Origin: Mya arenaria
Taxonomy: Eukaryota; Mollusca; Bivalvia; Myida; Myidae
Assembly (NCBI RefSeq): GCF_026914265.1
Contig: NC_069134.1
Location: forward strand, 9,045,758-9,109,757
Direction of reading: 5' to 3'
DNA: 64,000 nucleotides
The notes below the pieces were generated by a model. That model worked only from the letters and a program-made list of their open reading frames with translations. It searched no databases and was not told where the DNA came from. This document shows, piece after piece, positions 5,301 to 64,000 of this stretch (positions are counted from its first letter, which is position 1; every line of letters begins with the position of its first letter). Both the position numbers and the translations under genes were made by a program.

Positions 5301-6779
5301 AACTGCACTATTTTCTAATATGTCCACTTGTTAATCCTATTTGGAAAAAAAAACCAATATACTTTACCGTAAAAATTTTAGTTAATCAATTTAAAAGAAA
5401 TTGATTCTTTTTATCTCACTACTGTATCGATGATATTGTGCATTAATTGAAATAAGTGAATATTATTAACCATTGCATGTTTATTAAAAAAAATGATATT
5501 ATTTGAACTAACCACATTCCACTACCTAGTTATAATTCATTTGTATACTGATAAATTCCACAACGGTTATAAAGCCGCTATTAATAATATTGGGTTTTCA
5601 CATGCTTTTACTTAAATGTAAATTTTGATATAAAAAAAGGATATTGAATTTCGCTGAGTAGAATGTAGACAGATTTTCCTTGCATACGTAGTTTTCTATT
5701 ATGAACTATACTTCTTTTTTTCTTTTTAAATAACATCGACCAATACTTACTATAAATAATTATTGCAGGCATTTTGCTTGTTTTTAATTGTATCAAAACG
5801 CCCCAACTACATAGTTATACTTTTAGATGTTGAGGTATTTTATTGAAAGAACAATGATCGTTATACGCTCGGACATGAGCAATTTGACACGAAAAAAATG
5901 AAACGAGATGTTATTCATATTTAAGAAGCACACCCATCAAATAACGATATAGAACATTAATCTAATTTTCACTCTCTTTTCGTCATAAATCCCGGATATA
6001 AACAGGGTACATCATTAATGAACTTTGTTACTGTACCTTAATCGTTAAATATGTACTCGGTCGAAAGCAAGCGACATAACCCTTTTTTTATTACACATTT
6101 CAGGATTTCTTATTTGCCTAGTAACATCCAGACCAAGATTGCCAAGGGAGCCAATCAATGTAGTTATTGACGGTCTGGTGGTCATTTCGTCTCCAGGCTA
6201 CGAGACGGATGAGTACCCGGGGGACACGGAACAAACATGGGATTTGCAGGCTCCAGCAGCGAAGGTTTGTATATGTTTATGTTCTTTTATGAATGGTAAA
6301 TACTTATGATTTTAAATAATCTGGATAATTAAGAGAATGAAGATTAATTGTAGAATAAATGAATTCATATTATAACTAAAGAAGGCATAAGATGAATACT
6401 CTTACGACTTTACATGTTATCATCATGACTTAATAATTCATCCGTTTAATACCTGTCTCATTATCCAAAAGCATTATCTCCACTGCACATTTAAAGGTTA
6501 TAAATACAATTGTTATTATAGTTGTTATTCTATTATTGCAGAAAGTCCATGTCTATTTCGAAGATTTTGTCCTTGAGTATCACCCAAAATGCATGTGGGA
6601 CCGTTTAGAAATATTTAATGACAAATGTAGCAGCAAGGCCAACGACCCAGACACTGTTTTATGTGGAACATTGGATCCATTTACTTTTAATTGTTCTGGG
6701 GACGCTCTATGTTTGAAATTTCATTCAGACGGGGTCATCCACTACAGAGGCTTTAAAGCCATCGTATCCGCCATTGAAG
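2383..6779 (+). CDS. Exons 1-3: signal peptide and CUB domain 1
   Basis: Exon 1 encodes a Met-Arg start and a run of hydrophobic residues; the donor GTACGT leaves phase 1. Exon 2 completes the hydrophobic core (Gly-Phe-Leu-Ile-Cys-Leu-Val-Thr-Ser), giving a 19-residue signal peptide, and then starts CUB1 (VISSPGY, YPG motif). Exon 3 carries the second half (WDRLEIF, CGTLDP, LKFHSDG, GF). The more consensus donor GTAAGT 4 nt downstream in exon 1 is ruled out because it shifts exon 2 into a frame with an early stop. Confidence 0.8.
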
Positions 6780-9700: not shown

Positions 9701-12700
9701 GAATACAACAGCTGAATATATTGATTCTGGGCTGAAATCGCATAATACATCACCATCCACGAATACAACAGCTGAATCTATTGATTCTGGGCAGACATCG
9801 CACAATACAACACCATCCACGAATACAACAGCTGAATCTATTGATTCTGGGCATAAATCGCATAATACAACATCATCCAAGAATACAACAGCTGAATATA
9901 TTGATTCTGGGCTGAAATCGCATAATACATCACCATCCACGAATACAACAGCTGAATCTATTGATTCTGGGCAGACATCGCACAATACAACACCATCCAC
10001 GAATACAACAGCCGAATCTATTGATTCTGGGCATAAATCGCATAATACAACATCATCCACGAATACAACAGCTGAATATATTGATTCTGGGCTGAAATCG
10101 CATAATACATCACCATCCACGAATATAACAGCTGAATCTATTGATTCTGGGCATAAATCGCATAATACATCACCATCCACGAATATAACAACAGTTGGGT
10201 ATAATGACTCTCGACAGACATCGCACGTTACATTAATATCAATGAATAATAGTAATGCAACACATCTAACAACGCCTGATTCTATTACCTCTGAACCACT
10301 ACCAGCTAATTCAACTGATCCGAATATTGAACACAGTGTAACAGAAGAAATCACCACAAACTATCATATCAAAACCACCACTACACCAATCGTCACATCA
10401 TCAACACAAACTGAAGCAGCGATGCCTACACAAGAAGTTTTTTCAACAAACTTGATGACCAAGTCTGGTGAAAATTTAACTACAGAAATGGATGATATGG
10501 CCACGCCAGCGACATCTAGTTCCTCTTCGATACCAAGTGTTTCCGGAATAACAGACTCATTGTTAACCACAATACAACGGTTACTGTCTACAACTACGGA
10601 GACTACGGTATCAACAGAAGATAGTACAGAAACAACGAGCCATGAAATGTCAGAGAGTTCTCCGACCCAGAAAACTCTATTGTCGGGCTGCTCTGCTAAC
10701 AACCCACCGGAGGAGCTCACAGAGTATAATGGATATATTTCTTCTCCTGGTTCTGATATTAACTCGGGATATCCACCAGACACTGTATGTAGATGGAAAA
10801 TTCACCTGAACAACGCAAAAGTAAGCAAATAAATATACACATAAAACCACATATTTATTATGATGTTTCTGAAACTTTTGGTTCTATTGTTTGAGCAATG
10901 TTATTTCGTCGGTTTCAACTACTTTGATGTATTCGTTTCAGTTGATAGTAGTTGTCTTTGAAATGTTTGACATAGAAGACGGCGAAAAATGCCAATACGA
11001 CAAACTTGCTTTTTATAGCATTTCTGGGGACGAAAGTGAAAATAAAATGCTCGCTTCTTATTGTGGTTCAAACTTACCGCCAACCTTACATACTACAGAG
11101 AACCTGCTTGTAGAGTTCACATCAGATCTAATTATTCAGAAGAATGGCTTTCGCTTACGATTTTATAAAACACAAAATGAAGCAGGTAAAAGTATGTAAA
11201 TGAATTCAATAAATGTAATTCTTCATATCTTTATTTCTTGTCGGCTAGTCAAGAATTAATAGTGTTCCGTAAAAGAAGGGATCTTCACCAATGTTATACG
11301 CTTTTAATAAGACAATGTGAATTTAGATGCCTGGGGACACCATATTATTTTGGGAACAAATATAAGGGTTTAATGTGTAGGGCAAGAAATGGAAAATGAA
11401 TCAAAATACCATACGGATTCGAATATTTGGAAATACACTGTTTTGACCGCATAGATTGAAAACTAGATCATTTCACCTGGCAATCAACAATGACCGCATT
11501 GATTGAAAAGTAGATCGTTTCACCTGGCAATCAACAATACAAACTGCCATAACTTTATCTGTAATGTATTTGCTGACATTTCTTTTACTTACTTGTAATC
11601 ACTAAGCAGTACGGTTCCATATGATACAAAAAAGATATACAATGTTACTATTATTGCTTATGGCTGGATGAAAGAAGTCTTATTTAAGCATTCGGTACCT
11701 TGAGCATTCGTATAGAAGTGAAACTAAGATAATTGGAAGTAGTAACATGTCAAAATATGTCAACCAGATATTTAAGAAAAAAACAGATCATAAACTTCTA
11801 ATCCATATCAAACCAACATGTTGGTCTTTTAGATCTTTTAAACTTAAAAACTTAGACTTTCTTAATATTTTAAGTCTGCTTTGTTGACATGAATTGTTAA
11901 GGATAAACGCGCTCAATGAACTTCATAGAAATTATTGTTAATTCACTTAAGGACAATTCGCCCAAACACTTGTATATTTTTCTTCAGAGTTTATTCTAGC
12001 AATAAACATTAAGATTTCATGGGCGAAAATGGCCGTTTTTTATATAGGCAAATATTTAAACAATGTTGGAATTCAATAGTGTTAACTTGCCATTCATGTT
12101 TGTATTGTATTTACTGACTATCGTTTTTATTCGCCCATTTTATTAGGTATAAGGTACTATTATATAGTTACATTCAAAACATTGTTAAACGAACAAGTAG
12201 CTGAATCATTTTAAAGTACACGTACACCAAACTATAACTTCCAGTTGAACCTACATCGTCAATTTGTAGTTTAATATAATCATAAACACTTATAAAAACT
12301 TATAAGTGTTCAAGTATGAATGTAATTACGGCACGCTGGAATGAATGTATGTCTGCACCAAGTTATCAGATAATGGTTAAAATTGATTACATACATGCTC
12401 CAATTTTTACTCTAGGTCAGAGCTGCTCCGCGGGCCGGGTACCGTGTGGCAGCGGGGAGGAGTGTGTGCCACAGGAATGGCGCTGTGATGGCACGATCGA
12501 TTGTGCTGACGGCAGCGACGAACAGTATTGTTGTAGGTGTTGCTGAATATTTATGATAGTTTTGTCTAGTAAGATCTTTATGCCAGGGAAATCTATCGCA
12601 ACAGATCTTGGGCTACTTGGCGCCAGTGCATCTTTGTCCCTATATCTTCAGCAGATGGATACACAACTGTGTACGAAGAATGAACGTGAGATGTGAACAA

Positions 12701-15700: not shown

Positions 15701-18700
15701 GCTATTGGTGTACTGAATAAACAAATATATTTTAGAGACACATTAATTATATATTTATACCCTGGCCCAAAAGCCTGCGGTCGGATTTCGTCCAAGAACC
15801 TTTTTTCAACACACGAATAACAAGAAAAATGAGTTACCAGATGTTTTGTTTAATTTTATTTATATGGAAGGCTATTAATAAACACCGAGCCGTCGTACAC
15901 CGTACTATGGCTTACAGTCATTTGATGTTTTTTAATGTTAAAGAATTGTTTGTAAATTTAGTTTTTATAAGTAATGAGCAAGCTATGATTGCAATGATAC
16001 CTATATGATATGGGATTGTCGTTGTCTTGTCGTTGTAAGACTACTCGCCATTGTGTTGGCTCTTGTCCGCTAAACCCAGTATGGGCCTCACACTATAGTC
16101 TACAGTTCCATTTAAGATTGCTATCTATATATCCGTATATGTTAACCTCGTATTCCTGACCATTTTAGGTATGCAACCGAAGTAACAGCAATTAAAATAA
16201 CAGAACACACTGGAAAGTTTGCTTCAATAACAGATCATGGAGGAAACATTTCATTTACGTCATGCGAATCCTGTGACCTAGACAAAACAACGCTCCTTGC
16301 GTGTTCGGATGAAGGTGACTGGCTTTTATAAAACAAACATAGACTAAACATACATCAATACAAACAAAATTGCTCTACCTATCGCTATGAAGGCTGCTTG
16401 TTTAGTATTTTTCCTGTATGGGACTTTTTCACGAAGTTTCTACTACACTATCGGTGCAATTCGACTAGACGTCAGTAAAATGTCTGGCCACGAGGAGTAT
16501 CAATGTAGTTTACTTTAAATTAAAGTTTTCAGTCTCCATGCGATTAGCTTTTTCGGGAAAATATATTTTAAATGGATACTAATTTGGTTCCCAGATCGTG
16601 CATTTATTATTAATTATTTCAGGCTGTGGTCAAAAGTCTAATGAATATAGAAAGAAGAGGGTTATAGGCGGATCGGTGTCCGCAAAGGGTGAATGGCCGT
16701 GGATAGTTGGGCTCAGAATTGGATCCGGCAATGTTATTTGCGGAGGTTCAATAATTGGAGAGTCTTGGGTTTTAACTGCCGGACATTGTGTGAATGAGTA
16801 AGTTTAGTTTTCTATATTATGTAAATACAGAAATGCATCGAATTGTGTATTTTACCAGTATGCCCGAATACTGTAAAGGTGTTTTATTGCTGTATTCATT
16901 GATAGCTTACATTTTCCCATCTTAACCAACTTTGATATTTGTTCGAAATAAATCAAGGAAAAGAAAAAACACGTCTTTTAAACATCGCACATATAACGTC
17001 CTTTATATTCACCATTCCTTTTTTAGTCTCGCTCAAAATCCTCAGGAGGTATCTATTGTTTCTGGTGTGAGCGATATTAATGATGACTCGCGTCAAGTGA
17101 GATTTGCATCTGAGATTGTAATACACCCGGATTACAACTTCATCTACAATGCTGATATTGCTCTTATTCGCCTTCAACGTCCTTTTACGTTTACAAGCGA
17201 TATAAGGTCAATATGTTTGCCTTGGGACAAAAGGCAATTTTCACCGGACTCGAACTGCTTTATAGCAGGCTACGGTGTATGGGACATGAAAGGTAACACT
17301 TCGTTCCACCAATCACACATGTTTGTTTCTTCCTGCTGGACTTGTCTTGAAGGTTTCATTTGATAATATGTTTGAATCATTTGACATGTACGACCTATAA
17401 TACTGGTATTAATATTGTGTAGCTTTTTGTGTTTGTCAAATTTTGCAAATCTAAATCAAGGGGTGAAAGCGAAATGTTATATCTTCTTCTTTATTTAATG
17501 TCACTTATGACCTTTTCGCATTCACCCCTCGAAATGCGTGTGATAGTTTTTAATGTACATACAAGAGGTAATAGCTTATGTTTAAATCGTATTGATTTCT
17601 TATTCGTAGATTATTATACAACTATTGCTCCACGATTTCTCCGACACGTTCGTATAAAGGTGATCAGCCATAGCACCTGTGGAGAACTCTACTCTTATAA
17701 GACCTACATCCGAGACAGCATGATGTGTGCTGGGTACACGGGGGGAGGAATCGACGCCTGCAAGGTAGAATAGTGGTAATAACACAATGCAACAACAGCT
17801 CTCCATTATATGTATTAAATAAGTAACAAAAAAAGTTGTTGGATTCAAAACTGGGCAAATATTTTTTAGGATCCATTGGTTAATTATTTTTCGAATCTTC
17901 TTGCTAATTGGAGTTGATACTGGTTATATGAAATTATATCAAATATTGATACATACTAATTTCTGATGTACCTTTATAGAAAAAACTGGCTGGCTATATT
18001 ATTTTTACATAAAAGGGTGATTCGGGAAGTGGTCTAATGTGTGAGGTGGACAATGGAAGGTGGACATTGGCCGGAGTGGTCAGTTGGGGCGATATGTGCG
18101 GGCAGACGAACAGGCCTGGAGTCTACACCAGCGTCACAGCGTTTGTCGACTGGATTGATGAAGTGACTGTTGATACCCGTATGCCATCATTTTAAAATTC
18201 GCGTTGATTCCCCTAACAGTTGAACTATAGTTGAATGGAAAAAATAAAGTACATTTAAAATCACAGGAATAAATTAGTTGCAATAAGCTTATAATATTGA
18301 AGATGATCAAATAAATAATTCAGGGGAGTGTTATGAGTGGACAATACTTTGTTTTTAATACAGAACCAACGGTGAACTGCACGTTTGAAGACGGATGGTG
18401 CGGTTATACTGATGCATCAAGTGGGGACTACTTTTGGACAAGGCAACCAGCAGACAAGTTCATCAAGGGTAAAACTAAACGCACTAAACTTAGTCAATTC
18501 TTGTGTCGAAATTATATTTAATTACTTTATAATCTATCGATACATACGGCGTTATGGATGAAAATTATAATGCGTGTTATTTTATGGCAGCTAAGATAGG
18601 CTCCACATTGAAATACACGCGTTATTAAAGCGTGATCCTTAAGAAATAAACAACCAAAGCATGGATACAGCATTCTCATTTTTTAAACTGTTCATTGCCA

Positions 18701-20749
18701 ATCAACCCCAACCACTGGCTTACGAAATTCTTTTTTTTTTTTTCTTCTGATAATTGTTATGAAAAATCCAATGGTTCAATCGATATGGCCAAACATAAAT
18801 AATTACACTGTGGACGAAGTATGAGGAAGTATGTGCGGTCATAAGCACTTTATTTGAATCAATCAAATATTCTTTTTTTTTTTTTTTTCAGATTCGTACA
18901 TGATTTATTCAATATGCATTTTACATAGCATAGTATGACATTACATAATACCAATTTACAAGCATGCTATAAGAATGCAGTTATGTTATTTATGAATAGT
19001 AATTGAGATACTATGAATGTAGAACCAATCTAAACCAAAAAAAAGACTGGGGAAAAGAAGGAAGGAAAAGAAAAAAATCATAAAACATGCATGTTAATGA
19101 TCTAATTGTACAAATGAATAAAACAATGTATCGAAATGAACAAACAACTTTTGAAAAAGTGTAGTTACAAAAACAAATTTCTTACAATTGCCCAATTACT
19201 TTTAAATTTATCTGAGATATTTGTATTTTTATAAATGTTCCATGCTAACTGAAGGCTATTTCTGAAACCAATTACTGTTGGAACACACTTTTTTCTTTTA
19301 CACAAAAAATAAATTTCTTATATTCTAATAAAAGTATATCAAATTTAAAGTTATTATTCCCAGAACCTAACAATACATACATACTGTTTATGACAATACT
19401 TGAGTCATTTGTATTCAATTTTTGTAGCATATCCTGCAATACCTCTTCTTTAATTTAACACGAAAACAAACAATGAGAAGCTCTGTAACCTGGGTATTTG
19501 CCTTTGTTTCAGGAATGGTTCTGTTTGCCGCAAGACCACACTCTAGTTCACCAAAGCCAGCAAACGCAACGCTAATAACGCCAAAATTTTCAAACAACGA
19601 TCCAAAGTGTCTAAGTTTCAACTTCATGTTCAGCACAAACTCGAATCTAACATTTTCGGTCTATGGTTTAAGCAAAGAAAACGAAAATCCTACAGAAAAT
19701 GAAAGAAGCAAGGATCTGATTTGGCAAGTAACTAGTCATTATCGCTCGTCAAATACTTGGAGGTCAACAGAAGTCTTTATACCAAGGAAAACAGTTCAGT
19801 TGATGATGAACGTTTACCATGACCAAGGCACTGTGTTTGGCCTTGGATTAGACAATGTTACACTAAGCGATGGCCAGTGTATAGGTATGTAATGCATTAT
19901 GAAACTTACTTAATGTTAACTCATTGGCAATGTAGGACAAATGACTTTGAATTGTGCTCAACATAGTAAAATAAATATGTCGTTGAAAATTTGTTTTGGT
20001 AGGAACAAACATTGATCTTTTCCTTTGTATATAACATTCATGATGCACACACATTGTTTTAGCATTTTAGCAATTTTTAATAACTTAAATAATATTTTAA
20101 CCACTTACAGCGAACGAGTTTCTATCATGTGATTTTAGTGATAGAAACTCCTGTCTCTTTACCGAGTCTACGGATAGAAATGCCGTTTCCTGGATGTTGA
20201 AATCCAATGACAAAAATGGTAAGTATTAGTACACTTATATGAAACTTATATATATAATTGATATTTTTATTTTATTTTGAAACAATATAAATGTTAATGA
20301 CGCTTATATGCTGTAAACACGATAACGTGTCTCTTTTTTAACAATATTTACCATTTTCTTCAGGTAACTATATCGTGGCAGGAGGCAACAAGTCAACATT
20401 TGGTTTCATGGCAATCTCACAGTTAATTTCACCACCACTTACATCACTGTTTACTGGACTTCCCCATTGCGTGCATTTTAAAGTGAACAAGTTCAGTAAC
20501 TCTACGGCGAATTTGATTCTAGCAACATATGTGTCCATCGGTGGTACGTTAAATAACCAGAAAATATTCTGGACGTCGGAAATTTTACCGACCCTTGTTT
20601 GGACCTCAGTAAAAATAACTGTTCTGCCACAGACAATGGACGAATATTTTGATCACGTGGTTTTTGAAATTCGGAGGCAACACTATGCAACTGATTTAAT
20701 TCAGTTTGGTCTCGATGACATCTATGTCACAGATGGGATATGTGTGTAA
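2383..20749 (+). CDS. Secreted CUB/mucin/LDLa/SRCR/trypsin/MAM mosaic serine protease
   Basis: Twenty exons: 2383-2413, 6104-6264, 6542-6779, 6880-7685, 7908-8124, 8302-8861, 9141-10820, 10942-11185, 12416-12532, 13119-13229, 13512-13665, 16169-16314, 16623-16797, 17027-17292, 17610-17764, 18016-18178, 18364-18468, 19513-19884, 20111-20218, 20364-20749. All introns are GT-AG, all phases agree, and the total is 6195 nt (2064 residues plus TAA). Predicted order by residue: signal peptide 1-19 (split by intron 1), CUB1 about 28-143, Ser/Thr-rich 144-370, CUB2 371-484, Ser/Thr-rich 485-630, CUB3 631-775, 20-residue repeats 795-1024 within a longer mucin-like stretch, CUB4 1188-1312, LDLa 1313-1351 and 1352-1388, SRCR 1389-1488, trypsin-like 1489-1741, MAM 1742-1900 and 1901-2064. 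The LDLa-SRCR-trypsin order is that of enteropeptidase, where MAM and CUB also occur, but here the MAMs follow the protease. Inferred role: an extracellular, glycosylated trypsin-like protease in digestion, mucus or defence. No transmembrane segment is seen. Exon choice is by eye; intron 16/exon 17 and exon 9's donor (GTAGGT) are the least certain joins. Confidence 0.85.
2611..2697. repeat. 24-bp minisatellite, about 4 copies
   Basis: The unit TATCATATTAGTAGATTAC plus 5 bases restarts at 2611, 2635, 2659 and 2683, nearly identical each time. It lies in intron 1 of the protease gene. No function is apparent. Confidence 0.9.
3490..5470 (+). mobile_element. Broken LINE in protease intron 1
   Basis: A decayed LINE reverse transcriptase in sense orientation. 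Recognisable pieces in order: [23 protein letters not shown] at 3749-3847; a stretch matching the region after [32 protein letters not shown] at about 4207-4257; [18 protein letters not shown] at about 4354-4407; [14 protein letters not shown] at about 4540-4580; and a C-terminal tail with [17 protein letters not shown] at about 5276-5330. Many stops and frame changes, so not functional. It accounts for over half of intron 1 (2414-6103). Confidence 0.85.
6880..7556 (+). CDS. Exon 4 (5' part): first mucin-like Ser/Thr-rich segment
   Basis: About 225 residues dominated by Ser, Thr and Ala with scattered Pro and Asn, typical of an O-glycosylated spacer. The exon begins at 6880 after a CAG acceptor, phase 1, and its first codons read Asp-Tyr-Glu-Glu. 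The Met codon at 6864 is intronic in this model and is not a start. The same exon continues into CUB2. Confidence 0.75.
7557..8124 (+). CDS. Exons 4 (3' part) and 5: CUB domain 2
   Basis: The first half starts at Met-Cys (7557) and contains [12 protein letters not shown], a form of the CUB opening S-P-x-Y-x-x-x-Y-P. The second half (7908-8124) contains FSIEYH, C-WDYV-I, CGLSLP and ITFHSD-----GF. The intron falls in the middle of the domain, as in CUB1, CUB3 and CUB4, so the four arose by duplication of a two-exon unit (inference). Confidence 0.8.
8302..8738 (+). CDS. Exon 6 (5' part): second mucin-like Ser/Thr-rich segment
   Basis: About 145 residues rich in Thr, Ser, Asn and Gln, with several N-x-T/S sites. 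The acceptor is the CAG ending at 8301, phase 1. The composition marks an extended glycosylated linker between CUB2 and CUB3. No internal tandem repeat is visible. Confidence 0.7.
8739..9453 (+). CDS. Exons 6 (3' part) and 7 (5' part): CUB domain 3
   Basis: The first half contains [12 protein letters not shown]. The second half opens at 9141 (after TTGACAG) with IRDFDLE, then [12 protein letters not shown] and a long insertion, then [20 protein letters not shown]. The extra 30 or so residues between the CGW and LRF parts are longer than in CUB1, 2 and 4. Confidence 0.75.
9511..10200 (+). repeat. In-frame 60-bp repeat (20 residues) with 180-bp higher-order period
   Basis: About 11.5 copies of a 60-bp unit coding for a 20-residue Ser/Thr/Asn-rich peptide (core [18 protein letters not shown]). 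Three variants alternate, marked by QTSHNTT, HKSHNTT and LKSHNTS, so the true period is 180 bp and about three trimers are present. All copies keep the frame and the N-x-T sites. It is part of exon 7 and should vary in length between alleles (inference). The long open frame on the opposite strand here is a by-product of the repeat. Confidence 0.95.
10689..11185 (+). CDS. Exons 7 (3' end) and 8: CUB domain 4
   Basis: Opens at Cys (10689) with [20 protein letters not shown] and CRWKI, then exon 8 (10942-11185) with [24 protein letters not shown] and [18 protein letters not shown]. This copy matches the CUB consensus best of the four. It ends in phase 1, ready for the LDLa exons. Confidence 0.85.
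11186..12415. other. Intron 8 of the protease gene
   Basis: 1230 bp with no supported coding exon. It holds a short imperfect duplication at about 11443-11535 (the string GATTGAAAA-TAGATC-TTTCACCTGGCAATCAACAAT occurs twice, about 59 bp apart). Otherwise plain AT-rich sequence. Confidence 0.6.
12416..13229 (+). CDS. Exons 9-10: two LDL-receptor class A domains
   Basis: Exon 9 gives six Cys and the complete calcium cage [13 protein letters not shown]. Exon 10 gives CSNGSCI and [13 protein letters not shown]: the spacing is kept, but two calcium ligands of the consensus C-D-G-x-x-D-C-x-D-x-S-D-E are replaced (His for Asp, Phe for Asp). The second domain may therefore bind calcium weakly. Both exons are phase 1-1, the usual shuffling-competent arrangement. 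Confidence 0.85.
13512..16314 (+). CDS. Exons 11-12: SRCR domain
   Basis: Exon 11 reads [17 protein letters not shown], then KLCFSQSM and CRQAGLR, which match the first half of a scavenger-receptor cysteine-rich domain (the CRQ-G signature). Exon 12, 2.5 kb downstream, adds the rest, with C-SC and LLACSDEG, after a phase-2 join. It sits directly before the protease, as in enteropeptidase and TMPRSS proteins. Confidence 0.75.
13666..15435. other. Protease intron 11, first part; unresolved degraded sequence
   Basis: No host exon is supported. A 118-codon open frame on the minus strand (14915-15271), and further minus-strand coding-like pieces toward 14750 ([11 protein letters not shown]), may be an old insertion. 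The tract GATACAAAAATCTTTATTT at 14190 would be its 3' end read backwards. I cannot name the family. Confidence 0.3.
15436..15681. mobile_element. Near-perfect inverted repeat (foldback/MITE-like)
   Basis: The left arm 15436-15530 and right arm 15587-15681 are reverse complements over 95 bp with only two or three differences by eye, separated by a 56-bp AT-rich loop. The arm ends are CACTGG-ACCGGATTTTC and its complement. There is no coding capacity. It lies in the intron within the SRCR-coding region. The near identity of the arms suggests a young insertion or ongoing gene conversion. Confidence 0.85.
16623..18178 (+). CDS. Exons 13-16: trypsin-like (S1) catalytic domain
   Basis: Exons 16623-16797, 17027-17292, 17610-17764, 18016-18178. 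The activation site KKR|VIGG is at residues 1499-1505. The catalytic triad is His1543 (LTAGHC), Asp1590 (NADIALI) and Ser1690 (GDSG). Asp1684, six before the serine, predicts cleavage after Lys or Arg. Cysteines for the propeptide link (GCGQ with SICLP) and the four usual internal pairs are present. Oddities: GDSGSG where almost all family members have GDSGGP; TAGHC for TAAHC; and AGYG for AGWG. All four exon joins are in phase. Exon 16 reads through to a stop at 18195 if not spliced at C|GTATGC. Confidence 0.9.
18364..20749 (+). CDS. Exons 17-20: two MAM domains
   Basis: Exon 17 (18364-18468) starts MAM1 with [13 protein letters not shown], and exon 18 (19513-19884) carries its jelly-roll core ending [15 protein letters not shown]. 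Exons 19 (20111-20218) and 20 (20364-20749) form MAM2, from SCDFSD to [13 protein letters not shown], closely followed by the stop. The acceptor at 18363 is used rather than the CAG at 18323, because only the former keeps phase 1 from exon 16. MAM domains usually mediate adhesion or oligomerisation. Their placement after the protease is unusual. Confidence 0.85.
18870..19440 (-). mobile_element. Possible decayed retroelement 3' fragment
   Basis: A long T run (about 18873-18888) followed by AT-rich sequence whose minus strand has coding-like stretches, such as a Phe-Arg-Asn-Ser run near 19250. This could be the tail of a minus-strand LINE in intron 17. Weak evidence; it could be simple AT-rich intron. 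Confidence 0.25.
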
Positions 20750-21959: not shown

Positions 21960-26580
<4,621 letters not shown>

Positions 26581-44870: not shown

Positions 44871-44975
44871 ACACACACACACACAAGATAACAAGATATA
44901 CACAACGAAAGACACACATCGAGATACACACAACGATTGACACGCAATCCGATAGACGCACAGCGAGATACACAC

Positions 44976-45470
44976 CACGATAGACACACAACGTGACACA
45001 CACAATAAAGGCTCACAGCGAGATACTCACCACGATAGACACACACCATGACACATACAATAAAGGCACACAGCAAGACACTCACCACGATAGATACACA
45101 ACGTGACACATACAATAAAGGCTCACAGCAAGATACTCACCACGATAGACACACAACGTGACACAAACAATAAAGGCGCACAGCGAGATACTCACCACGA
45201 TAGACACACAACGTGACACATACAATAAAGGCTCACAGCAAGATACTCACCACGATAGACACACAACGTGACACAAACAATAAAGGCTCACAGCAAGATA
45301 CTCACCAAGATAGACACACAACGTGACACATACAATAAAGGCGCACAGCGGGATACACACCACGATAGATACACAACGTGACACATACAATAAAGGCGCA
45401 CAGCGAGATACACACACGATAGACACACACCGTGATGATACAGAACAAGAGACACACAACGAGAGACATA
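44976..45470. repeat. 55-bp minisatellite, about 9 copies
   Basis: CACGATAGACACACAACGTG starts at about 44976, 45031, 45086, 45141, 45196, 45251, 45306, 45361 and 45415. Each unit also holds ACATACAATAAAGG and CACAGC-AGATAC. The flanks (44885-44975 and 45440-45500) are CACAACGAGAGACA-type sequence identical in style to the 4.6-kb satellite at 22-26.5 kb. Confidence 0.95.
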
Positions 45471-46139: not shown

Positions 46140-46597
46140 ATGGAAAGAAGGATATGTGAATTCCGACCAGAAATTGTGCAGTGTATCAAAACAGAGCGTG
46201 TACTGCAGCACCTTGTTCCTTCATTTATAACCCAAGGTAATGTAAAACAATACATATTTCATGTATGTATATATTTCATAACGTATACAGAAATCATAAA
46301 AAAATGATCATATTTTTCGCGTTATGCTGGATTTTATGACAAGTACTGATTGTAATATTATTTGTTTTGTTGTGAATAACCCAAATCAAAGTAGGTTATC
46401 GGCTGTGGGATTCTAATGCAACGTAATCATGTTGCTATTGTTAGATTGGCATGTATTAATTTCAGGCGAGAGTAGAGTCATTAAACGGCTATACAAGATA
46501 TCCACAGAAAGGGCAAACAACAAACTTCTTGATAACTTATTGCTGTCTACGTCGCAAGGAAAATGGGTGGCGTTTATCGACGCCCTGAGAAGAGAAG
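46140..46597 (+). CDS. Exons 1-2: CARD-like domain 1
   Basis: The two exons join in phase 1. FRPEIVQCIKTERVLQHLVP resembles the first two helices of a RIG-I-type CARD, and NNKLLDNLLL followed by KWVAFIDALRREG resembles helices 4-6. It lacks the usual acidic loop after helix 3, so it is the weaker of the four. Confidence 0.65.
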
Positions 46598-49500
46598 GTT
46601 TCTGATTTGTTTATTTTAATCTTGTGAAAAGCGTTAGCATACAACTTAAAGTTACTCGTTCATGGTGTAAAAACTGCACTCTTGTTATTACGAAATAAAG
46701 TGTGGCAAATCATCAGGAGTATAAAACTTAGACACAGACGGCTTGAACCCTTCAACAAATGTTGATAAATGCTCAAATGTTGTCATTGAAGTCCACAATT
46801 TTGAAATGCGTCACTAACGCGATTCAACAAAAGGCTTTTACTTGATTTGATGATTGACATGTTTCCGACAAAAACATCAGAATTGTATAAGTCCTTGTGG
46901 GCAAGTTGATAAGCTATCGGGTTTCTATTTTTTCTTGATTGTACCGGTTCGCTCGCCACTATAACAAGGTTGTTGTTTATATACTTCCATTGCATTTTTT
47001 CTGCAATTTCCGTATCAAATAGTAAAATAATGATAATATACATGTTTTCAGATGCATTATCGGGAATATTATTGTTGGTGCGAGTCCCTGTAAAAAAAAA
47101 TTGAAGAATACTTCAAGAAGTTATTGTCTGTTTCAGAGTACATTTTTCTTGAGAAGCTTTTAAATTGCGAGGATACGTTGAACAAAACCAATTACAGAAA
47201 CTACAGAAGAATAATTGAATTGTTTGCACCGACATTAAAACAGCAAATAGAACCATCAGAACTGACAACATTTCTTGTGGCCGACAGAGTCATTTCTGAC
47301 GTAGACCAAGAGGAGATTATAGCCGAACAGCAGAACCACGGTTGTATAGCAGCCACGGTTGTTCTCCTTGATCGTATCAAAACCCATCTCAACCCTGATG
47401 AGTGGTATCAACGTTTCTTGCTGGTAAATGTTGTTTGTTTAGTATTAAGTACTTTTCCTGAGTGAAATATCCTGTTTCCTTCATTTTGTCCCATATGACC
47501 AATGCTCTTCAAGTAATAAAAACTATCGCGAAATCAATAACACGTGATAAAATGTAGGTTTTATGAAAATCTCAGTCATCATAAATTGTCGTGAAATAGG
47601 TATATATATATTAGAATTTGAATCTGATAGAGAAAGTTTACAAGGGACTAATACGTTCATTCCCCATGGATTTTTTTCTAAAACACTAACATATTTACTT
47701 GGTTGTAGAGTTTATCTAGTTATATTGCACAAATTAATATTCCTTAAAGGAGCATGCCCATATGGTTTAATGGTCATATATTGTCAGTCAGCTTGGATCA
47801 CTTTTTTACTTTATGTTCTGCATTTTACTAAAATTTATAGATTGACAAATACCACAGAATGAAAGAATGAAAGAATGTGTAAATCATGTAAGATGAATTT
47901 AACCGCCTACACAATTAAAGAATGCCAACGATTAAATAAATAGGTATCTTCCAATCCACATACATTTTGGAAAATAATAAAGAAACGCTATGATAAAAAG
48001 AAGATAAATTAATTTCATAAAACGCTGCCGATTTATTCAACCATTTTAGAGACATGTTCAACCAATATGAAAATCATGACAAAGAACACTTCGAGTCTAA
48101 CAACCACAAAGGATAATCAAAATCTTAGATATACCCGAAAACGAAATCATAAAAGCTGTTTTATCTTAAACTAATAATAAAAGCTCTGACAGATATCAGT
48201 TGCCTACCCAATTATTCATATGTTTAATGCTAATACTTCCTCTTTACAATCGTATATTTCTAACACAAGTACACCCCGAGTCATTGGGTAAAGATATTGT
48301 TACCCAAGTGTTCAAAAAGGGGATGTTTACGATGGTATAAACTATAAAGGGACCACTTTAACTAATATAAATTTCACAAATATACACTCAAATCTTGTTA
48401 AATATGCTGACTTAATTGTCACAAGAGAATGCAAAGTTAACAGAAAACCAGTTTGGATTCCAAATAGCTGACTGTATATTTATTCCACAATCTATTATAT
48501 CGAAAACGTTGAGTGAAAAGCAAGGACTCTGTATAACTCTGTCAAGCTGTGTGTTAAATTCAACACGGTGTTCTCTCCCTTAATCGAATATTCTTCTGGA
48601 GCGCTGTTCTTGATAAACGATATTATTAAAAATATAAATTCTGACTTGCTTGGAATATATTAAATATTCTCATTATTATTATATGCAGACGACATGGTAT
48701 AATTTGCAGTCACAAGACAGTTTAAAAGCGATTTTGAAAAAAATGTTGAAAATTACTGGCGATTAAGAATCAATGTTGGCAAAAGTAAAGCATGATAATT
48801 TGAAATGGAAGATCCACACATATTGATATATCACTCTATCAATTTATAGCACTCCATCGAAGTATTTCCATCATTCAAGTATCTTGGCATCCGTTTATTA
48901 AAAAACCCCGGAAACTTTCTGAGTTAAAAAAAATGTTGGACAACACTTTGGAATGTATGGTTAAAAAAGAAATAGGCAGTTTTTGTCTCGAGCTTAAACG
49001 AAATAGGAGTTTTGATAAATATTTCCAAAAATGGTACTCGGAAATGAAAAATCCTCTAAATTAAAAAGTTATGCTATATACAAACACGCCTTTGAAAGAG
49101 AAAAGTTCACATATTTTTTTATTATCAGCAAGAAACACTGGAATCATGCAAGATTTCGAACATCATCGGATCAACTGGCTGAATTTAATTGAAACAGAAG
49201 GTCATTTTCTTTAAGTATTTCCAAAATACAGAGAAATAATTTCAAACCATATTTTTGCCATTGGCTATCAATTAACAAATTTGCCAATTTCATGAGTTCA
49301 ACTTCAAACTTTATAATATTACAAATTTGATTTATTCAGATTCAAATCTCATGAATGTTATGTCTTAGAACAAGCCTGTTAAAAGCAATATATTCGCTGT
49401 ATCCTCTTGTTTATTCAATATCTTATTATATTGTATGTATTGTTTTTTTTTGCTATTTACATTGTATTGTTTTATGCAGTACATGTATTATACATAGATT

Positions 49501-52500
49501 ATAGTTTTTGATTTACAGATTTGTACAAGCCGGTATCATGAATGCATTCACTTAGTATTTTCAGATATCTTAGTAAACACTGTAATCTAGAGATCCAGTA
49601 ACTATAATTATTCTTATTTTCACACATCTCACTTACAAGGGCACGACAACATAAACTATCATAAATTTTACCATATGTTTTCCATGTCTATAGGCATTGT
49701 ACAAAAACGGACAAAGCTCTCTCGTTAAGGATGTCGACCCAGACTTTTACTGGAAACATCAAACGGAAGAAACTATAGAACGGACTGGTATGCTACATAA
49801 CTTAAATTCTTTCCAATTTCAGTAAGATAGGAATTCAATGGTTATTAAGAAAATCTATTAGCTTAAACTTCTTTGGACACACAATAAATTTTATCCATTG
49901 TTTGTTTCAGTACCTTGCGACAAAGGCTCCGTTAATACAGAAAGGGCGGCTGGTGAAATGCCAGAAGATGCAGAATCAAACATTGCAAAGAGAATCATTG
50001 ATTACTGGTCGGAAATTGTGGAAATTGTGGATATAGATGATTTGAACCAGTATTTAAACCCTGATCTTCTTGATGAAGGTACTGCATTAGGGAAATGTTG
50101 CTGTAATACAGTATGCCTTTAAATCAAATTTATTGATGTTTAGCAGACGCTAAAGTTTATTTCAATATTTATATACAAAACAACAGAAACAAGCACAGTT
50201 GTCGAAGGTTGAAAGTTTAAACATAAACCCCGTTTAATGGCACATGGTTAACATCAAAGACATAAAACACAGAAACAAATAATTAACACTAATCAAATTT
50301 CTTTTAAAATCCGGCTTATTTGAAATCTTTTTAATCGGCACACATTTTGCATTTATTAGTAGATGGAACAAGAATAAGGGGAATAGAGCCAGAACATACA
50401 GGAGAAGCATTGAGTAAGCTGTTACACAAGGTTATAGGAGGAAAAGTTTGTCGAACGTTTCTGTGTGTCCTAGTAAACGCAGGTACCTTATCTTATTTGA
50501 TTTTTAAAATGCATAATTGCACCCGGAGCATAAACGTTTTACAATGCAATGTGTATTTTCCATAAATAAGTTTGTTTGTGCCGGCTGTTATATTCCTATG
50601 TATAACAAATTGCCGTTTCAATTTTCACAGGTTATCCGTTTCTTGCCTCATTTCTGAAAAGTGATTCGGACAATTCTTTAAAAACATCAACTTATTTGAG
50701 GAATCTTATTCAGATATTCTCTTCCCGTGTTCAAAACCAGTTGGATGTAAACCATGTTCTAAGCGATTTGGTTGCGGAAAGTGTAATAAGCCAAACAGAC
50801 AATGAGAAAATTAAGTCTGTGCTTGATTTAAGAGGAAACACAGCCGCTGCCATGGAGCTCTTAGATCGTATTCACAAGCGCCTTGAGCCTTGCAGTTGGT
50901 ATAGCACGTTTCTTCAGATATTAGTGAGGAGAGGACATGCACACATTGTTAAAATAATCGAACCTGATTATTTGGAAAACCAAACAAACTTCAGAGAAGA
51001 ATTACGTAAAATAGGTGTGCTACCTTTTAAACATATTTTGGTTAAACGTATTTAAAATATAAAAGGTTGTTTGTGGTTGTAGAAATAAAGAATTATGCCG
51101 ATAATCGATTGATTACTCTAATTTGCACAAGTAATTTTCATGCATGTATCGTGTGATGTATACATGGGCTGGTGGCCTTCTAGCAAGTAAATTGTTTGTT
51201 ATTGTTTGTCTTGACTCATGGAAACATGCGATATTTATTTAAATTTTTCTTTTTAGCAGAAAGCAACCTTCAGGAAGATTTGGCATTTTCTTTTGATAGT
51301 CCAAGCGATAAGACGTCTCTAGTTAAGGCCATTAAAAAGCGTATACACAATTTGGAATTGTCGAAAGAGGAAGCTTTGATCTCGATAGACAAATGGTTTT
51401 TGAAATTACAGGCATCATGTGAAGAAACAAAACGCGAAGTTTCAAGTTTAGCTAGCAGTGAACATGAGAGTCTTCAAAGGGTGTTGATAGACGTACAAGG
51501 TGTACCAAGTCAGGGTATTTACTTACCTGTTTTTTTTTAAATTTTCGCAATTTGTAAGAGATTCGTTTTCGATTTTGTTCATGATAATTGGAAATTATTT
51601 TAAATATAAAAAGAGATACTCCTTTATACCTAATCTAAATGTTGTTGTTTTCAGATGACCAGTTTGGCACTTTTAGAGACAGATGTTATGAACAAATTGG
51701 AACTTTGCCGAAAGCGATTTTATTTGAAAACAGCTCAGACTTAATTCTTTTCGGAGGATTTGGAACCGTATCGCTAGTTGAAAATCGAATGCGTGAAAAC
51801 GAACGTTTGCCAATCATTGACAACAGAATAAGCAGAGAAAAGAAACTGTCGAATGAAATTTCTAGGCTTAAACTCAGTTATTCTCCTTCCTCATCTTCGT
51901 CCTTTTTGAAAGTCAAAGGCAATCAGGTGCGAAAAACAGGAATGGCATTTCATGAGGCCTCATCATCCAAATCAAATTCGAGCCAAGGCGTCTTCGGAAG
52001 GTTCCAGCTACTGAAAAGCATAGAGTCAAACACGCTCTTAAGTTTGTCTTTTACGGACGCCGTGATCGATGCAAACGGCCATATAGTAGCGTTTTGTACT
52101 ACATTGTCTTCATTCTTCAGAATCGGCTTTGTTCAAAATCAGTTGGTGTTCCGTGATGTTATACAGTATGAGCATAACTGTGAGCAGCTTTGCCTTCTTG
52201 ACAAAAATGTCATTGGTGCAATGACTTCGAAAAATAAACCTTTGGTGACGATAGGAGGTAGTTGCGTTGAATTAGTTTTGAAATGGGAATGTGTTAGCCC
52301 AAAACAGACTATAGCAGCTGCAAAGGACAAAATGCTAGTTCTTTGCTCTGGTAAGCACATTCACGTATACAAACTATCGGAATTTAAGCAAGATGAGGTG
52401 AATCTTGGTGGTATTCCTATTTCCAAGGATTGGAATCCATCTAGTGCAGTCCTGAATACAGAAGAGTCGCAGATAATTGTCGCTGAGAATGGTATTTTCT

Positions 52501-52928
52501 GCTTTGACCTGTTAAATGGGGTCATGTTGTGGCAGTGGTCGGAAAAACGTCAACCCTTGATGAACCACCGAATCTTTAGAAAAATCAGCTTTTTTGATAA
52601 ATTCGTGGTTATCGCTCATTCATCTACTAAGGGCATTGGATTTAGCCGGCTCGACATTGATGAAAAACACGTTGAATTATTGGCAGAAAACGTGTGCAAC
52701 TTCAGAGCAAATGTTTTCTTTGAAAATTGCAAGAACGGCAAATTAAAAGCGTACCTCATTACCAAAGGTGAAATCAAGATAATGTACCTAAATCGCTCAC
52801 AGACTGATTTAGCAGACAAATATAAGTCGATGCACACTGCAAATGAAAATACACATTCGGACGACGGATACGTACTAATGCCTGTTTGCCTTGATGGGTC
52901 GGAATCATCAGCATATATATTTCCTTAG
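46140..52928 (+). CDS. Four-CARD protein with coiled coil and beta-propeller-like tail
   Basis: Nine exons: 46140-46236, 46466-46597, 47137-47423, 49694-49787, 49911-50078, 50360-50482, 50631-51014, 51257-51514, 51655-52928. All are GT-AG, phases agree, and the total is 2817 nt (938 residues plus stop). The start is the first Met after an in-frame TGA at 46110. Residues about 1-76, 77-203, 204-310 and 320-428 each match the CARD pattern of RIG-I/MDA5-like helicases: a central helix ending ADRVIS or AESVIS, a helix with AA---LLDRI, then W---FL--L. Domains 2 and 4 are clearest. Residues 429-514 are charged and helical, like the TRIM coiled coil. Residues 515-938, in one exon, look like a propeller of repeated beta strands. 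No nuclease, helicase, RING, NB-ARC or caspase domain is visible. Inferred role: cytosolic adaptor or sensor that nucleates CARD signalling. The CARD calls are by pattern only. Confidence 0.8.
47137..49787 (+). CDS. Exons 3-4: CARD-like domain 2
   Basis: Exon 3 has YRRIIELFAPTLKQQIEPSE, FLVADRVIS, EEIIAEQQNHGC and LLDRI followed by WYQRFLL. Exon 4 completes it with ALYKNGQSSLVKDVDPDFYW, like the -AL--GY--L---I-PD tail of RIG-I-like receptor CARDs. A 2.27-kb intron, which contains a LINE, separates the two exons. Confidence 0.8.
47424..49693. other. CARD gene intron 3
   Basis: The first 500 bp hold no supported exon; a 99-codon open frame (47563-47862) has no recognisable features. The rest is mainly the LINE remnant. 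The terminal AT-rich 350 bp are plain intron. Confidence 0.5.
47930..49350 (+). mobile_element. Broken LINE in CARD gene intron 3
   Basis: A decayed reverse transcriptase in sense orientation: VTQVFKKGDVYDG-NYKGTTL at about 48301-48360, LCVKFNTVFSPL at about 48550, INDIIKNINSDLLG at about 48613, YADDMV at about 48686, FKYLGIRLL at about 48877, and a C-terminal region to about 49350. Many stops. It differs in sequence from the copy at 3490-5470, so it is a separate family or a much older insertion. Confidence 0.8.
49911..51014 (+). CDS. Exons 5-7: CARD-like domains 3 and 4
   Basis: Exons 5-6 give domain 3: IAKRIIDYWSEIVEIVDID, LNQYLNPDLLDEG, then ALSKLLHKVIGGK and RTFLCVLVNAGYPF. It is more diverged. 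Exon 7 gives domain 4 whole: LRNLIQIFSSRVQNQLDVN, LVAESVISQTDNEKI, RGNTAAAMELLDRIHKRLEP, WYSTFLQILVRRGH, IVKIIEPDYL. Domains 2 and 4 resemble each other most, suggesting a tandem duplication of a two-CARD unit (1-2 giving 3-4). Confidence 0.75.
50150..50290 (+). repeat. Dispersed repeat fragment in CARD gene intron 5
   Basis: AAAGTTTAAACATAAACCCC through AATGGCACATGGTTAACATC and AAAGACATAAAACACA has a diverged relative at 54160-54270 (AAAGTTTAAACATCCACCCG, AAATGGCACTGGGCAAACGC, AAAGACATAGCACATA). This is a dispersed non-coding family. Confidence 0.65.
51257..51514 (+). CDS. Exon 8: TRIM-like coiled-coil segment
   Basis: About 86 residues, highly charged, with heptad-like spacing (LVKAIKKRIHNLELSKEEAL, WFLKLQASCEETKREVSSL), like the post-B-box coiled coil of TRIM proteins. 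The acceptor is TAGCAG, a NAGNAG pair, so splicing at 51257 or 51260 adds or drops one residue. Two in-phase donors exist (after 51499 and 51514), so a five-residue variation is also possible. Confidence 0.7.
51655..52928 (+). CDS. Exon 9: beta-propeller-like C-terminal region
   Basis: One long exon. After a Ser-rich linker with SYSPSSSSSFLK, a series of alternating hydrophobic strands and turns runs to the end, with blade-like pieces such as AVIDANGHIVAFC, KQTIAAAKDKMLVLCSGKHI, SQIIVAENGIFCFDLLNGV and FDKFVVIAHSSTKG. The spacing of about 45 residues and the loss of clear WD or NHL signatures make the fold an inference. The stop is at 52926-52928. Confidence 0.65.
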
Positions 52929-61500: not shown

Positions 61501-62535
61501 TCTATTTTTATACTTTTTCAAAAAAAATGAAACAAAGGGTGTAGAATACTGCAATTAAGGTTGTCCATGTATTTTTTTGTTTCTTTAAAGCTACATATCA
61601 CTGCCATTTCAAGTCATGTGTTATGTTTTCATTATCCAGCTCATTTCGAGATTGTGTTTTTAATGATTACAAAACGGGTGCCATACATTTACTTATTGTT
61701 TTGAAAATATGACATGCATATCAATAACAAGCCTCTGTTGATACCCTTGACTATTAAATCGTTAAAAAATATATGTCATGAACATTTATAGTATAATTTA
61801 ATATATATTCCAAATATTTTCTACAGTACACTTTATTCTTTTTTTATGTTTTATCCCAAAAAAAGAGTTACACACCTGAACCAAATAAAATGCAAAGATA
61901 AGGTAAAAAACAAACATGTCTGAACTTTTATCTGTCCTTGTGAACTGGTGTCGATATTGATAAGGAAAGTGCACATCTCCCTCTGTAAACATAAAAAGTG
62001 CAAATTGCCATAGTTACATGCACATAAACATGTCAAGAACGTACAGCGAAACATCTGCTCTGCGTTCTGATGTTGACAATTTAATATGTTCTTCTTCAGA
62101 CCAGACATTAAGGAACGTTTAACTCAATTGGTGAGCGCTAATTATAAGTTGTGGCACATTCCGTGTGTGTTGTCATCTCCTGGAGGCTAATTCGGTGTTC
62201 GGAAATGTTGTTCTTAATTGGTCAAGAGAATTGACTCGGTTTCTCATTCATCATTTTCTCAGAAATAATGGCTTTGCAATTGAAACCATAGGATGGATGT
62301 CAGCAATTACATGAATTCGTTTGGATGTTCATAATATGGCCGGATCATGCTGAAATACTGAAGCATATTTTAATATTGTCTTATCAATAATAACTATTGC
62401 AAATCAAAGTTAAATTTTATGTTAATACTTATTAATAATAATCAACGAAAATCATAGATAAAGTACAACAGCTATAATATATATGTATATAAACCTCTTA
62501 GTAACATATATTATTTTTTTCTTTTCAGCTGAACA
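58570..62535. other. Intergenic or 5' region of the third gene
   Basis: About 4 kb with no supported gene. A 71-codon open frame at 60680-60895 (CTWKFDYPRTFC and several N-x-S/T sites) could be an exon of a secreted protein, but no consistent splice joins were found. A CA/CG-rich short repeat lies at 59973-60012. A strong splice acceptor ends at 62528, seven bases before the start codon of the next gene, so an untranslated exon should exist upstream. Confidence 0.4.
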
Positions 62536-64000
62536 ATGATTGGCTACTGCAGACTGATCGGGATCTTACTTCCATTGGTATATGGTTGTGTCTTTCCGGA
62601 CCATTTCCAAGGTCAGACATGGTATACAAACGTTAAAACGTCAACCAGAACAATGGTTTATTTTGTAGATGACATTATGGAATATAACGATGAAAATACT
62701 GAAGTCGGCTACGTTAGCAAAGTATATACGTACAAATGTGCGCAGAACATTGGTATTAAAAAATTCATTGTAGAACGTTATAAACAATTTACATGCATTT
62801 CACTGATTGCGAAAAGTTCGTCAGTTATGGAAGTATCAATGTCTCACCACGCGGATACACTAAACTCTTCATTGTGCGATTCGAATAACATTATAAAAAG
62901 CCCATGGTTATGGATTTCTTTGGAACTTATGAGAAAAGAGTTTTCCGTCTGTCCATTCTCGGGTGGATACAATATGAAGATTAAAGATAAAGGAGGTATT
63001 GATCACGCCTGCAATTTCATCGACCTCCCGATGCGCTTCGAGAGCGAGTGTTTGAGAGGGGAAGGAATGACGTTTGACTTACGGACAGAGCATTGCATAG
63101 GTGCTCTACCAATGCGTAAGACACAGAACGTAATGTGTGTGAGTCACTGGCGAGAAGATGGAGACGTGGTCACAGTTTTACGCGACACTGACACAGACAC
63201 CGTCTGGTGTCTTCGTATCCCCGCGAGGAATTCATTTACGGGAAAAACAATTATGCTTCTCTTCACTGATGTTGCCTGCAAAGTGGCTGCCGATGTCAAT
63301 TACTTTACTCTAGAATTACAGATGGTACCGCAAAATACACTCTGTACAGACGAGCACGCAAATTGCAACATACTTCCATGCACATCCCATTTCGAGTCTC
63401 AGTGCTTGCGAACATGCTCAATGTGTGACCCTAACACGTATCCGACAGCGTGTGATTTCCCAAAAAGGTTTAGAGGGAAATGGTTTCTTAACGATAATTT
63501 TGGTGTTTCTGATGTAAATATAACGACGTCTAAGATGCGTGTTGAAAGAATTGGAAATTTTAATTGTATATCTTTCCATGATTCACCACCTCGGAAATCT
63601 AAGCAATTCACAACGTTGTCATTCTTCAGCAACGGATGCAGGCCTCGATATACCTGCATCAGGTTCAAAACCCTGAACTCCAACGTGCTAGGTCTTGGTA
63701 TAAGTCAAAGTCGTGTGTGGCCTCTCCCAAATGGACATAGACAAGTTGGTGCGTCGGTGTGCGAGCTTAGTAATTTTAAAGAGGACCATGCACCGATAAG
63801 GGACACATTTAGAACGAACTCAGATATATTCAAGCCCATTGTCTCGTTGGTGAATAACATTAATTCAATGCAGTGTCCATTTCACAATAGTTTTGTGTTT
63901 AACGCAACTTTAAATAATGGGACAGTTTGCAATGGAGCATTTTTTAAACGTTGCAACGAGTCGTCTCATTTACTGTTTATCTTTCACAAATGCCCATACG
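62536..64000 (+). CDS. Secreted cysteine-rich protein with C-x-F-P repeats (5' part)
   Basis: The ATG at 62536 lies just after a strong acceptor (TTTTTTTCTTTTCAG). The frame stays open for 488 codons to the window edge, with no intron needed. A hydrophobic signal peptide of about 17 residues (LIGILLPLVYG) ends at the first Cys. The protein then shows alternating cysteine-rich modules. CVFPDHFQGQTWYT (start) and CDFPKRFRGKWFLND (about residue 310) share the pattern C-x-F-P-x-x-F-x-G-x-W. CPFSGGYNMKI and CPFHNSFVFNATL are a second repeating type. An SQC-RTCSMCD cluster lies between. This resembles the uncharacterised DUF7042-7045 type of secreted animal proteins (recalled from memory, not searched). 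Function unknown; extracellular location inferred from the signal peptide and the even spread of Cys. Confidence 0.8.
   Translation, partial: MIGYCRLIGILLPLVYGCVFPDHFQGQTWYTNVKTSTRTMVYFVDDIMEYNDENTEVGYVSKVYTYKCAQNIGIKKFIVERYKQFTCISLIAKSSSVMEVSMSHHADTLNSSLCDSNNIIKSPWLWISLELMRKEFSVCPFSGGYNMKIKDKGGIDHACNFIDLPMRFESECLRGEGMTFDLRTEHCIGALPMRKTQNVMCVSHWREDGDVVTVLRDTDTDTVWCLRIPARNSFTGKTIMLLFTDVACKVAADVNYFTLELQMVPQNTLCTDEHANCNILPCTSHFESQCLRTCSMCDPNTYPTACDFPKRFRGKWFLNDNFGVSDVNITTSKMRVERIGNFNCISFHDSPPRKSKQFTTLSFFSNGCRPRYTCIRFKTLNSNVLGLGISQSRVWPLPNGHRQVGASVCELSNFKEDHAPIRDTFRTNSDIFKPIVSLVNNINSMQCPFHNSFVFNATLNNGTVCNGAFFKRCNESSHLLFIFHKCPY

What the first reader, a model, noticed from the sequence alone, without database searches (positions are those of the whole stretch)
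46140..52928. Candidate new immune architecture: four CARDs, TRIM-like coiled coil, propeller
The sequence shows nine exons with consistent phases coding for four CARD-like modules, a coiled coil and a long beta-rich tail in one 938-residue protein. Tandem CARDs are known from RIG-I-like receptors, and coiled coil plus propeller from TRIM-like proteins. I know of no described protein joining the two without a helicase, RING or NB-ARC domain. Inference: a scaffold in which the propeller recognises a ligand and the CARDs nucleate signalling.
Basis: partly seen in the sequence, partly recalled or inferred. Interest (0 to 1): 0.75.

Follow-up and report, generated by a model that had tools for sequence, protein, structure and literature searches.

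The report
Clam four-CARD propeller protein, no helicase
A soft-shell clam gene joins two copies of the signalling head of RIG-I-like virus sensors to a probable beta-propeller in place of the RNA-reading motor, and a second clam has the same arrangement, which suggests an undescribed relative of antiviral receptors whose function has not been tested.

Summary
The gene is real. Splicing nine exons gives, letter for letter, the NCBI prediction LOC128213414 isoform X2 of Mya arenaria (937 aa; a NAGNAG acceptor explains a 936 aa form). Mercenaria mercenaria LOC123548821 matches residues 1-848 of 937, 31% identical, so a model chimera is unlikely and the fusion appears older than the Myida/Venerida split.

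The N-terminus is two copies of the tandem CARD of RIG-I/MDA5. Module A aligns with module B over 186 columns, and two introns coincide in position and phase. The nearest solved sequences are RIG-I and MDA5. CARD3 is decayed. Exon 9 is beta-rich; its low-confidence model matches WD40 propellers. The "TRIM-like coiled coil" is not supported. Pfam finds no helicase, RIG-I_C-RD, RING, B-box or NB-ARC.

Best reading: an RLR-derived receptor or scaffold whose propeller replaces the RNA-sensing helicase and whose CARDs seed MAVS-type assembly. The anatomy is shown; ligand, partner and expression are inferred or unknown. CARD plus WD40 (Apaf-1) and DED–TRADD-N–propeller proteins are known, so this is a new variant of a known kind.

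The parts
46140..46236 (+). exon 1: start codon and first part of CARD1 (residues 1-33), ends phase 1
   Evidence: the Mercenaria protein starts at the same methionine
46466..46597 (+). exon 2: rest of CARD1 except its last helix, ends phase 1
47137..47423 (+). exon 3: last helix of CARD1 and most of CARD2, ends phase 0
49694..49787 (+). exon 4: end of CARD2 (end of module A), ends phase 1
49911..50078 (+). exon 5: linker and first part of CARD3 (start of module B), ends phase 1
50360..50482 (+). exon 6: rest of CARD3 except its last helix; NAGNAG acceptor (start at 50360 gives 937 aa, at 50363 936 aa)
50631..51014 (+). exon 7: last helix of CARD3 and all of CARD4, ends phase 1
51655..52928 (+). 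exon 9: beta-rich tail, residues 514-937, probable beta-propeller from about residue 640, and stop codon
53210..53215 (+). AATAAA, candidate polyadenylation signal
   Evidence: motif scan
47424..49693 (+). intron 3, 2270 bases, seems to hold reverse-transcriptase-like remnants with stops (read by eye near 48680, not searched)
   Evidence: by eye; for the intron borders

Best explanation
This is an RLR-derived CARD receptor or scaffold of clams. Shown: two copies of an RLR-type tandem CARD, giving 2+2 CARDs, are joined through phase-1 introns to a helical linker exon and one large exon for a beta-rich, probably propeller domain; no helicase or RNA-binding RD is found. Inferred: at rest the propeller or the weak third CARD keeps the CARDs apart. 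When the propeller binds a protein or other ligand, two or more molecules are clustered, and the 2CARD modules form the helical CARD platform that RIG-I and MDA5 use to seed filaments of a MAVS-type CARD adaptor (oyster RIG-I CARDs bind oyster MAVS, PMC5557890, passages). Carrying two 2CARD modules in one chain would halve the number of molecules needed for a 2CARD tetramer.
Confidence: 0.5

Rival explanations
1. A negative regulator or decoy: without its own RNA sensor, the protein ties up MAVS-type CARDs or RLR CARDs, and the propeller places it on an organelle, ubiquitin or a degradation complex.
For: No helicase or RD found. LGP2 shows that an RLR relative lacking one end can act as a regulator (stated in PMC8998645 and PMC5557890, passages). 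CARD3 is decayed.
Against: CARD1, CARD2 and CARD4 are kept at 45-54% identity between two clam orders, more than a simple decoy seems to need.
Confidence: 0.22
2. An Apaf-1-like death platform: the propeller holds the protein closed, and the CARDs recruit a caspase when it opens.
Against: No NB-ARC motor was found to oligomerise it. Sequence similarity to RIG-I/MDA5 is many orders stronger.
Confidence: 0.12
3. A TRIM-type protein that lost RING and B-box and gained CARDs.
For: Order helix then propeller, the latter in one last large exon; resemblance to bivalve TRIM propellers is recalled only and comes from no call.
Against: No RING, B-box or NHL in Pfam at E up to 10; no heptad signal above shuffles; a sequence search with the C-terminal half found only itself (1 of 7992 candidates).
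Confidence: 0.08
4. An annotation artefact that fuses two neighbouring genes.
For: NCBI models are predictions; RNA reads were not seen here.
Against: The same fusion in the same order in Mercenaria, itself a prediction; all nine exons keep one frame.
Confidence: 0.03

Closest known systems
RIG-I and MDA5 (RIG-I-like receptors)
   Same: Tandem CARD_2 module; best sequence and structure matches; phase-1 candidate acceptor before the CARD1 tail helix as at RLR loci of the same genome
   Different: No DExD/H helicase and no RIG-I_C-RD found; the 2CARD module is present twice; a probable propeller instead
Apaf-1 and CARD-NB-ARC-WD40 relatives (placozoan paralogues: PMC6321704, passages)
   Same: CARD at one end and WD40-type propeller at the other
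   Different: No NB-ARC found; CARDs are of RLR type and four in number
DED-TRADD-N-WD40 propeller proteins of Branchiostoma and Crassostrea (PMC8195603, passages)
   Same: Death-fold head, linker and WD40 propeller tail; the paper suggests that such repeats might recognise invader molecules
   Different: CARDs of RLR type in two tandem pairs instead of DED plus TRADD-N
TRIM proteins
   Same: At most the order helix then propeller
   Different: No RING, B-box or NHL found

Membership tests
RIG-I-like receptor | N-terminal tandem CARD of the CARD_2 type | tested here: met
RIG-I-like receptor | DExD/H-box helicase domain | tested here: not met
   no helicase family in Pfam at E up to 10 for the 936 aa protein or up to 5 for the Mercenaria protein; no DECH, DEAH motif in open frames of 35 aa or more in the window
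RIG-I-like receptor | C-terminal RIG-I_C-RD (PF11648) | tested here: not met
   not among the Pfam matches at E up to 10 in Mya or up to 5 in Mercenaria
TRIM / RBCC protein | RING and B-box | tested here: not met
   no match in Pfam at E up to 10
TRIM / RBCC protein | antiparallel coiled coil | tested here: inconclusive
   predicted long helix of low confidence; heptad score within shuffles
TRIM / RBCC protein | NHL or similar C-terminal propeller | tested here: inconclusive
   WD40-type propellers head the list for a low-confidence model; no NHL sequence match
Apaf-1 family | NB-ARC between CARD and WD40 | tested here: not met
   no match in Pfam at E up to 10
Apaf-1 family | WD40 propellers | tested here: inconclusive
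   fold-level match of a model with mean pLDDT 39.3; no WD40 sequence family matched
DED-TRADD-N-propeller proteins | TRADD-N domain | tested here: inconclusive
   no Pfam match, but it is not known here whether Pfam covers the TRADD-N clades of that paper
MAVS | single CARD with C-terminal membrane anchor | not tested
   no transmembrane prediction was run; four CARDs already differ from MAVS

The most novel reading that the evidence does not exclude
Clams have a class of RLR-derived receptors that drop RNA sensing altogether: a duplicated 2CARD signalling head, pre-paired in one chain, is put under the control of a fast-changing propeller that recognises non-RNA ligands, so that the RLR-MAVS pathway is entered by a protein-sensing receptor.
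Probability: 0.3. Interest if true: 0.75.

Novelty: new variant of a known kind. Interest (0 to 1): 0.5.

Why it matters
The lophotrochozoan RLR survey read here defines the family by helicase and RD (PMC8998645, section 4.2), so a protein that keeps only the CARD head is missed by design. If it signals, it shows that the RLR CARD head is a movable module and that the MAVS pathway can be fed by sensors other than RNA helicases. It also gives a test object for how many CARDs in one chain are needed to seed a signalling filament.

Tried and rejected
TRIM origin: Pfam gave no RING, B-box or NHL. Coiled coil: heptad scoring against 300 shuffles gave nothing. Propeller repeats by self-comparison with hhalign: none found. 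NCBIfam: no match for P0001, one weak unrelated match for P0002 (E 0.9). Weak Pfam matches DUF3666 and Beta-prop_DCAF12 (both below cut-off) were not used as evidence of membership. HMMER's filters drop most matches above about E 0.1, so the Pfam absences mean no match at about that level. Further homologues: (C-terminal half) returned only the query, 1 of 7992 candidates; (profile of both species) returned only the query, 1 of 7994, although the Mercenaria protein belongs to the profile, so these searches do not show absence elsewhere. Rfam and tRNA scans of the window: nothing. Own-genome searches for RIG-I_C-RD (PF11648) and for copies of exon 9 never ran, so whether the clam has further propeller copies of this kind is unknown. 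Papers: ten searches listed no paper naming either gene (0 papers for both LOC numbers) and none that I saw to describe four CARDs plus propeller; six papers were opened, and of them only abstracts, passages or named sections were seen; subscription papers are not held. The Mercenaria genome paper (PMC8905726) has no 'CARD' or 'RIG-I' in its main text. The Mya cancer expression paper (PMC11978232) has no 'RIG-I', 'CARD' or 'LOC128' in its main text; supplements could not be read.

Phase-1 acceptor: of 9 CARD_2 exons of the own genome that I looked at, 7 have a phase-1 candidate acceptor before the CARD1 tail helix (two in L031, one each in L048, L045, L038, L040, L036) and 2 do not (L042, L034). 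Only the L031, L045 and L048 loci have RLR-type or DEAD helicase pieces nearby, so this intron is shared by CARD_2 genes and not proof of an RLR.

Tree: rows were the best CARD2-type hit of 35 of the 50 loci held (the genome had 52 CARD_2 matches; L010, which is this gene, was left out) plus four domains of this gene and its Mercenaria counterpart; 5 identical rows were dropped, 34 used. CARD2 and CARD4 of the two clams group together (88/84) and pair by position (91/67 and 94/90); none of these forks reaches the tool's starred level, and the place beside RLR loci is weak.

Full report
What is there. The window is part of contig C13 of an 18-contig, 1.2 Gb assembly (G000:C13:9045758-9109757). 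The protein it encodes is on record for Mya arenaria, the soft-shell clam, on a contig of 69354228 bases, the length of C13. Nine exons from 46140 to 52928 on the + strand, all GT-AG, give one open frame. With exon 6 from 50360 the product is identical to P0001, 'uncharacterized protein LOC128213414 isoform X2', 937 aa. The acceptor of exon 6 is a NAGNAG pair, and the second AG gives 936 aa. AATAAA lies about 280 bases after the stop codon (53210).

It is unlikely to be a chimera. Of 7995 candidates scored in a search of about 5.8 billion proteins, 2 matched at E up to 1: the protein itself and P0002, 'uncharacterized protein LOC123548821' of Mercenaria mercenaria, 925 aa. The pair aligns over residues 1-848 of 937, 272 of 883 columns identical, E 4e-106 for the single comparison. 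The propeller part alone gives 87.0 bits (residues 644-848) against a best of 23.9 in 100 shuffles; residues 514-640 alone give no BLAST match. Mya is in Myida and Mercenaria in Venerida. The limits of the search are plain: the same search with a profile of both (7994 candidates) did not return P0002, so the absence of other species says nothing.

The two modules are duplicates. Module A aligns with module B at 99.9% over 186 columns, 55 identical. Introns after codons 33 and 77 of module A, both phase 1, fall exactly on the introns at codons 260 and 301 of module B, both phase 1; two randomly placed introns would do so with a probability of about 2e-5. Module A has a third intron (after codon 172, phase 0) that module B lacks. 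Module A ends, module B begins and ends, and exon 8 begins and ends at phase-1 introns, a form that allows exons to be moved or copied without breaking the frame (established knowledge). A candidate phase-1 acceptor just before the CARD1 tail helix is also seen in 7 of 9 other CARD_2 exons examined, four of them at RLR or DEAD-helicase loci (two in L031, one each in L045, L048) and three at loci of other or unknown kind (L036, L038, L040); L034 and L042 lack it. So the intron marks CARD_2 genes in general. It is also why a coincidence of introns alone would not separate duplication inside this gene from two separate gains; the tree favours the former.

RLR loci for comparison. L048 and L032 carry DECHH and exons with VGLTAS; the VGLTAS exons match RIG-I best in L048 (1.6e-10) and MDA5 best in L032 (1.7e-5). 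In a tree of 34 CARD2-type domains the CARD2s and the CARD4s of the two clams pair by position (91/67, 94/90) and join each other (88/84), which suggests one duplication before the two orders split; none of these forks reaches the starred level, and the nearness to RLR loci is weak (84/81) with long branches.

What is missing. Pfam at E up to 10 lists no helicase, RIG-I_C-RD, RING, B-box, NHL or NB-ARC in the protein (HMMER's filters drop most matches above about 0.1). The window has no DECH or DEAH motif in open frames of 35 aa or more.

How it may work. Identity between the two clams is 54, 46, 23 and 45% for CARD1-4, 21% for exon 8 and 24% for exon 9. Three CARDs are held, the third and the tail drift. 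That fits a constant signalling head and a changing recognition tail, though relaxed constraint on the tail would look the same. In oyster, RIG-I CARDs bind MAVS and MAVS recruits TRAF6, while full-length RIG-I did not bind MAVS in that study (PMC5557890, passages). Human RIG-I 2CARDs form a short helix that seeds MAVS filaments (established knowledge; the CARD complexes 4p4h and 7dni are among the matches). I infer that ligand binding by the propeller clusters this protein and lets its paired 2CARDs seed a MAVS-type adaptor. A decoy role is the main rival.

What is known. Joining death folds to propellers is not new: Apaf-1 does so with NB-ARC (recalled; placozoan paralogues in PMC6321704, passages), and DED-TRADD-N-WD40 proteins are expanded in amphioxus and oyster, where the authors suggest that propellers might recognise invader molecules (PMC8195603, passages). 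N-terminal domain grafting on RLRs of lophotrochozoans is also described (PMC8998645: abstract, passages, sections 2.2 and 4.2 and figure legends), but that survey required RD and helicase. A duplicated RLR tandem CARD on a propeller without helicase was not seen in the listings of the ten paper searches made here. I file it as a new variant of a known kind.

Noticed in passing
G000:C12:21467160-21477227 (L044, L045): Five CARD_2 exons (two of them with a TGA inside) on the minus strand, four in a row 2.26 kb apart and the fifth 3.0 kb on, with a DEAD-type helicase piece further along the same strand: an array of tandem-CARD units at one RLR-like locus, or a recent segmental repeat.
   Followed up: partly
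G000:C6:76621000-76640999 (L036, L037): A CARD_2 exon (8.5e-17) is followed on the same strand by a DEAH motif and a Helicase_C piece (3.3e-10) with a weak RecQ_Zn_bind match: possible CARD-RecQ-like helicase, or two neighbouring genes; related CARD_2 exons occur several times on C6.
   Followed up: partly
G000:C12:62351161-62979522 (L001-L004, L006, L024-L028, L031, L032): Paired CARD_2 exons about 2.1-2.2 kb apart occur seven times; near the one pair examined an RLR-type helicase lies downstream: possibly RLRs with four CARDs, which would be a natural source for this gene.
   Followed up: partly
G000:C14:42973000-42992999, G000:C11:24081000-24100999, G000:C3:7299000-7325999, G000:C6:68053000-68072999: Further CARD_2 exons with no helicase motif (DECH, DEAH) seen in the 20-27 kb examined at each; what they are fused to is unknown.
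   Followed up: partly
window 22112-26547 and 44900-45468: The same short satellite-like unit (ACACAACGAGAGAC and variants) in two separate arrays, one of them ending about 670 bases before the start codon of this gene.
   Followed up: no
window 47424-49693: Intron 3 is 2270 bases and seems to hold a broken reverse-transcriptase remnant (read by eye near 48680, no search made).
   Followed up: no
window 6437-11196, 16926-17360, 19428-20746, 62533-63999: Other genes: CUB domains with a 60-base repeat array in an open frame (9499-10190), a trypsin-like piece, a MAM domain (a second one below cut-off), and DUF7042/7043/7044 domains.
   Followed up: no
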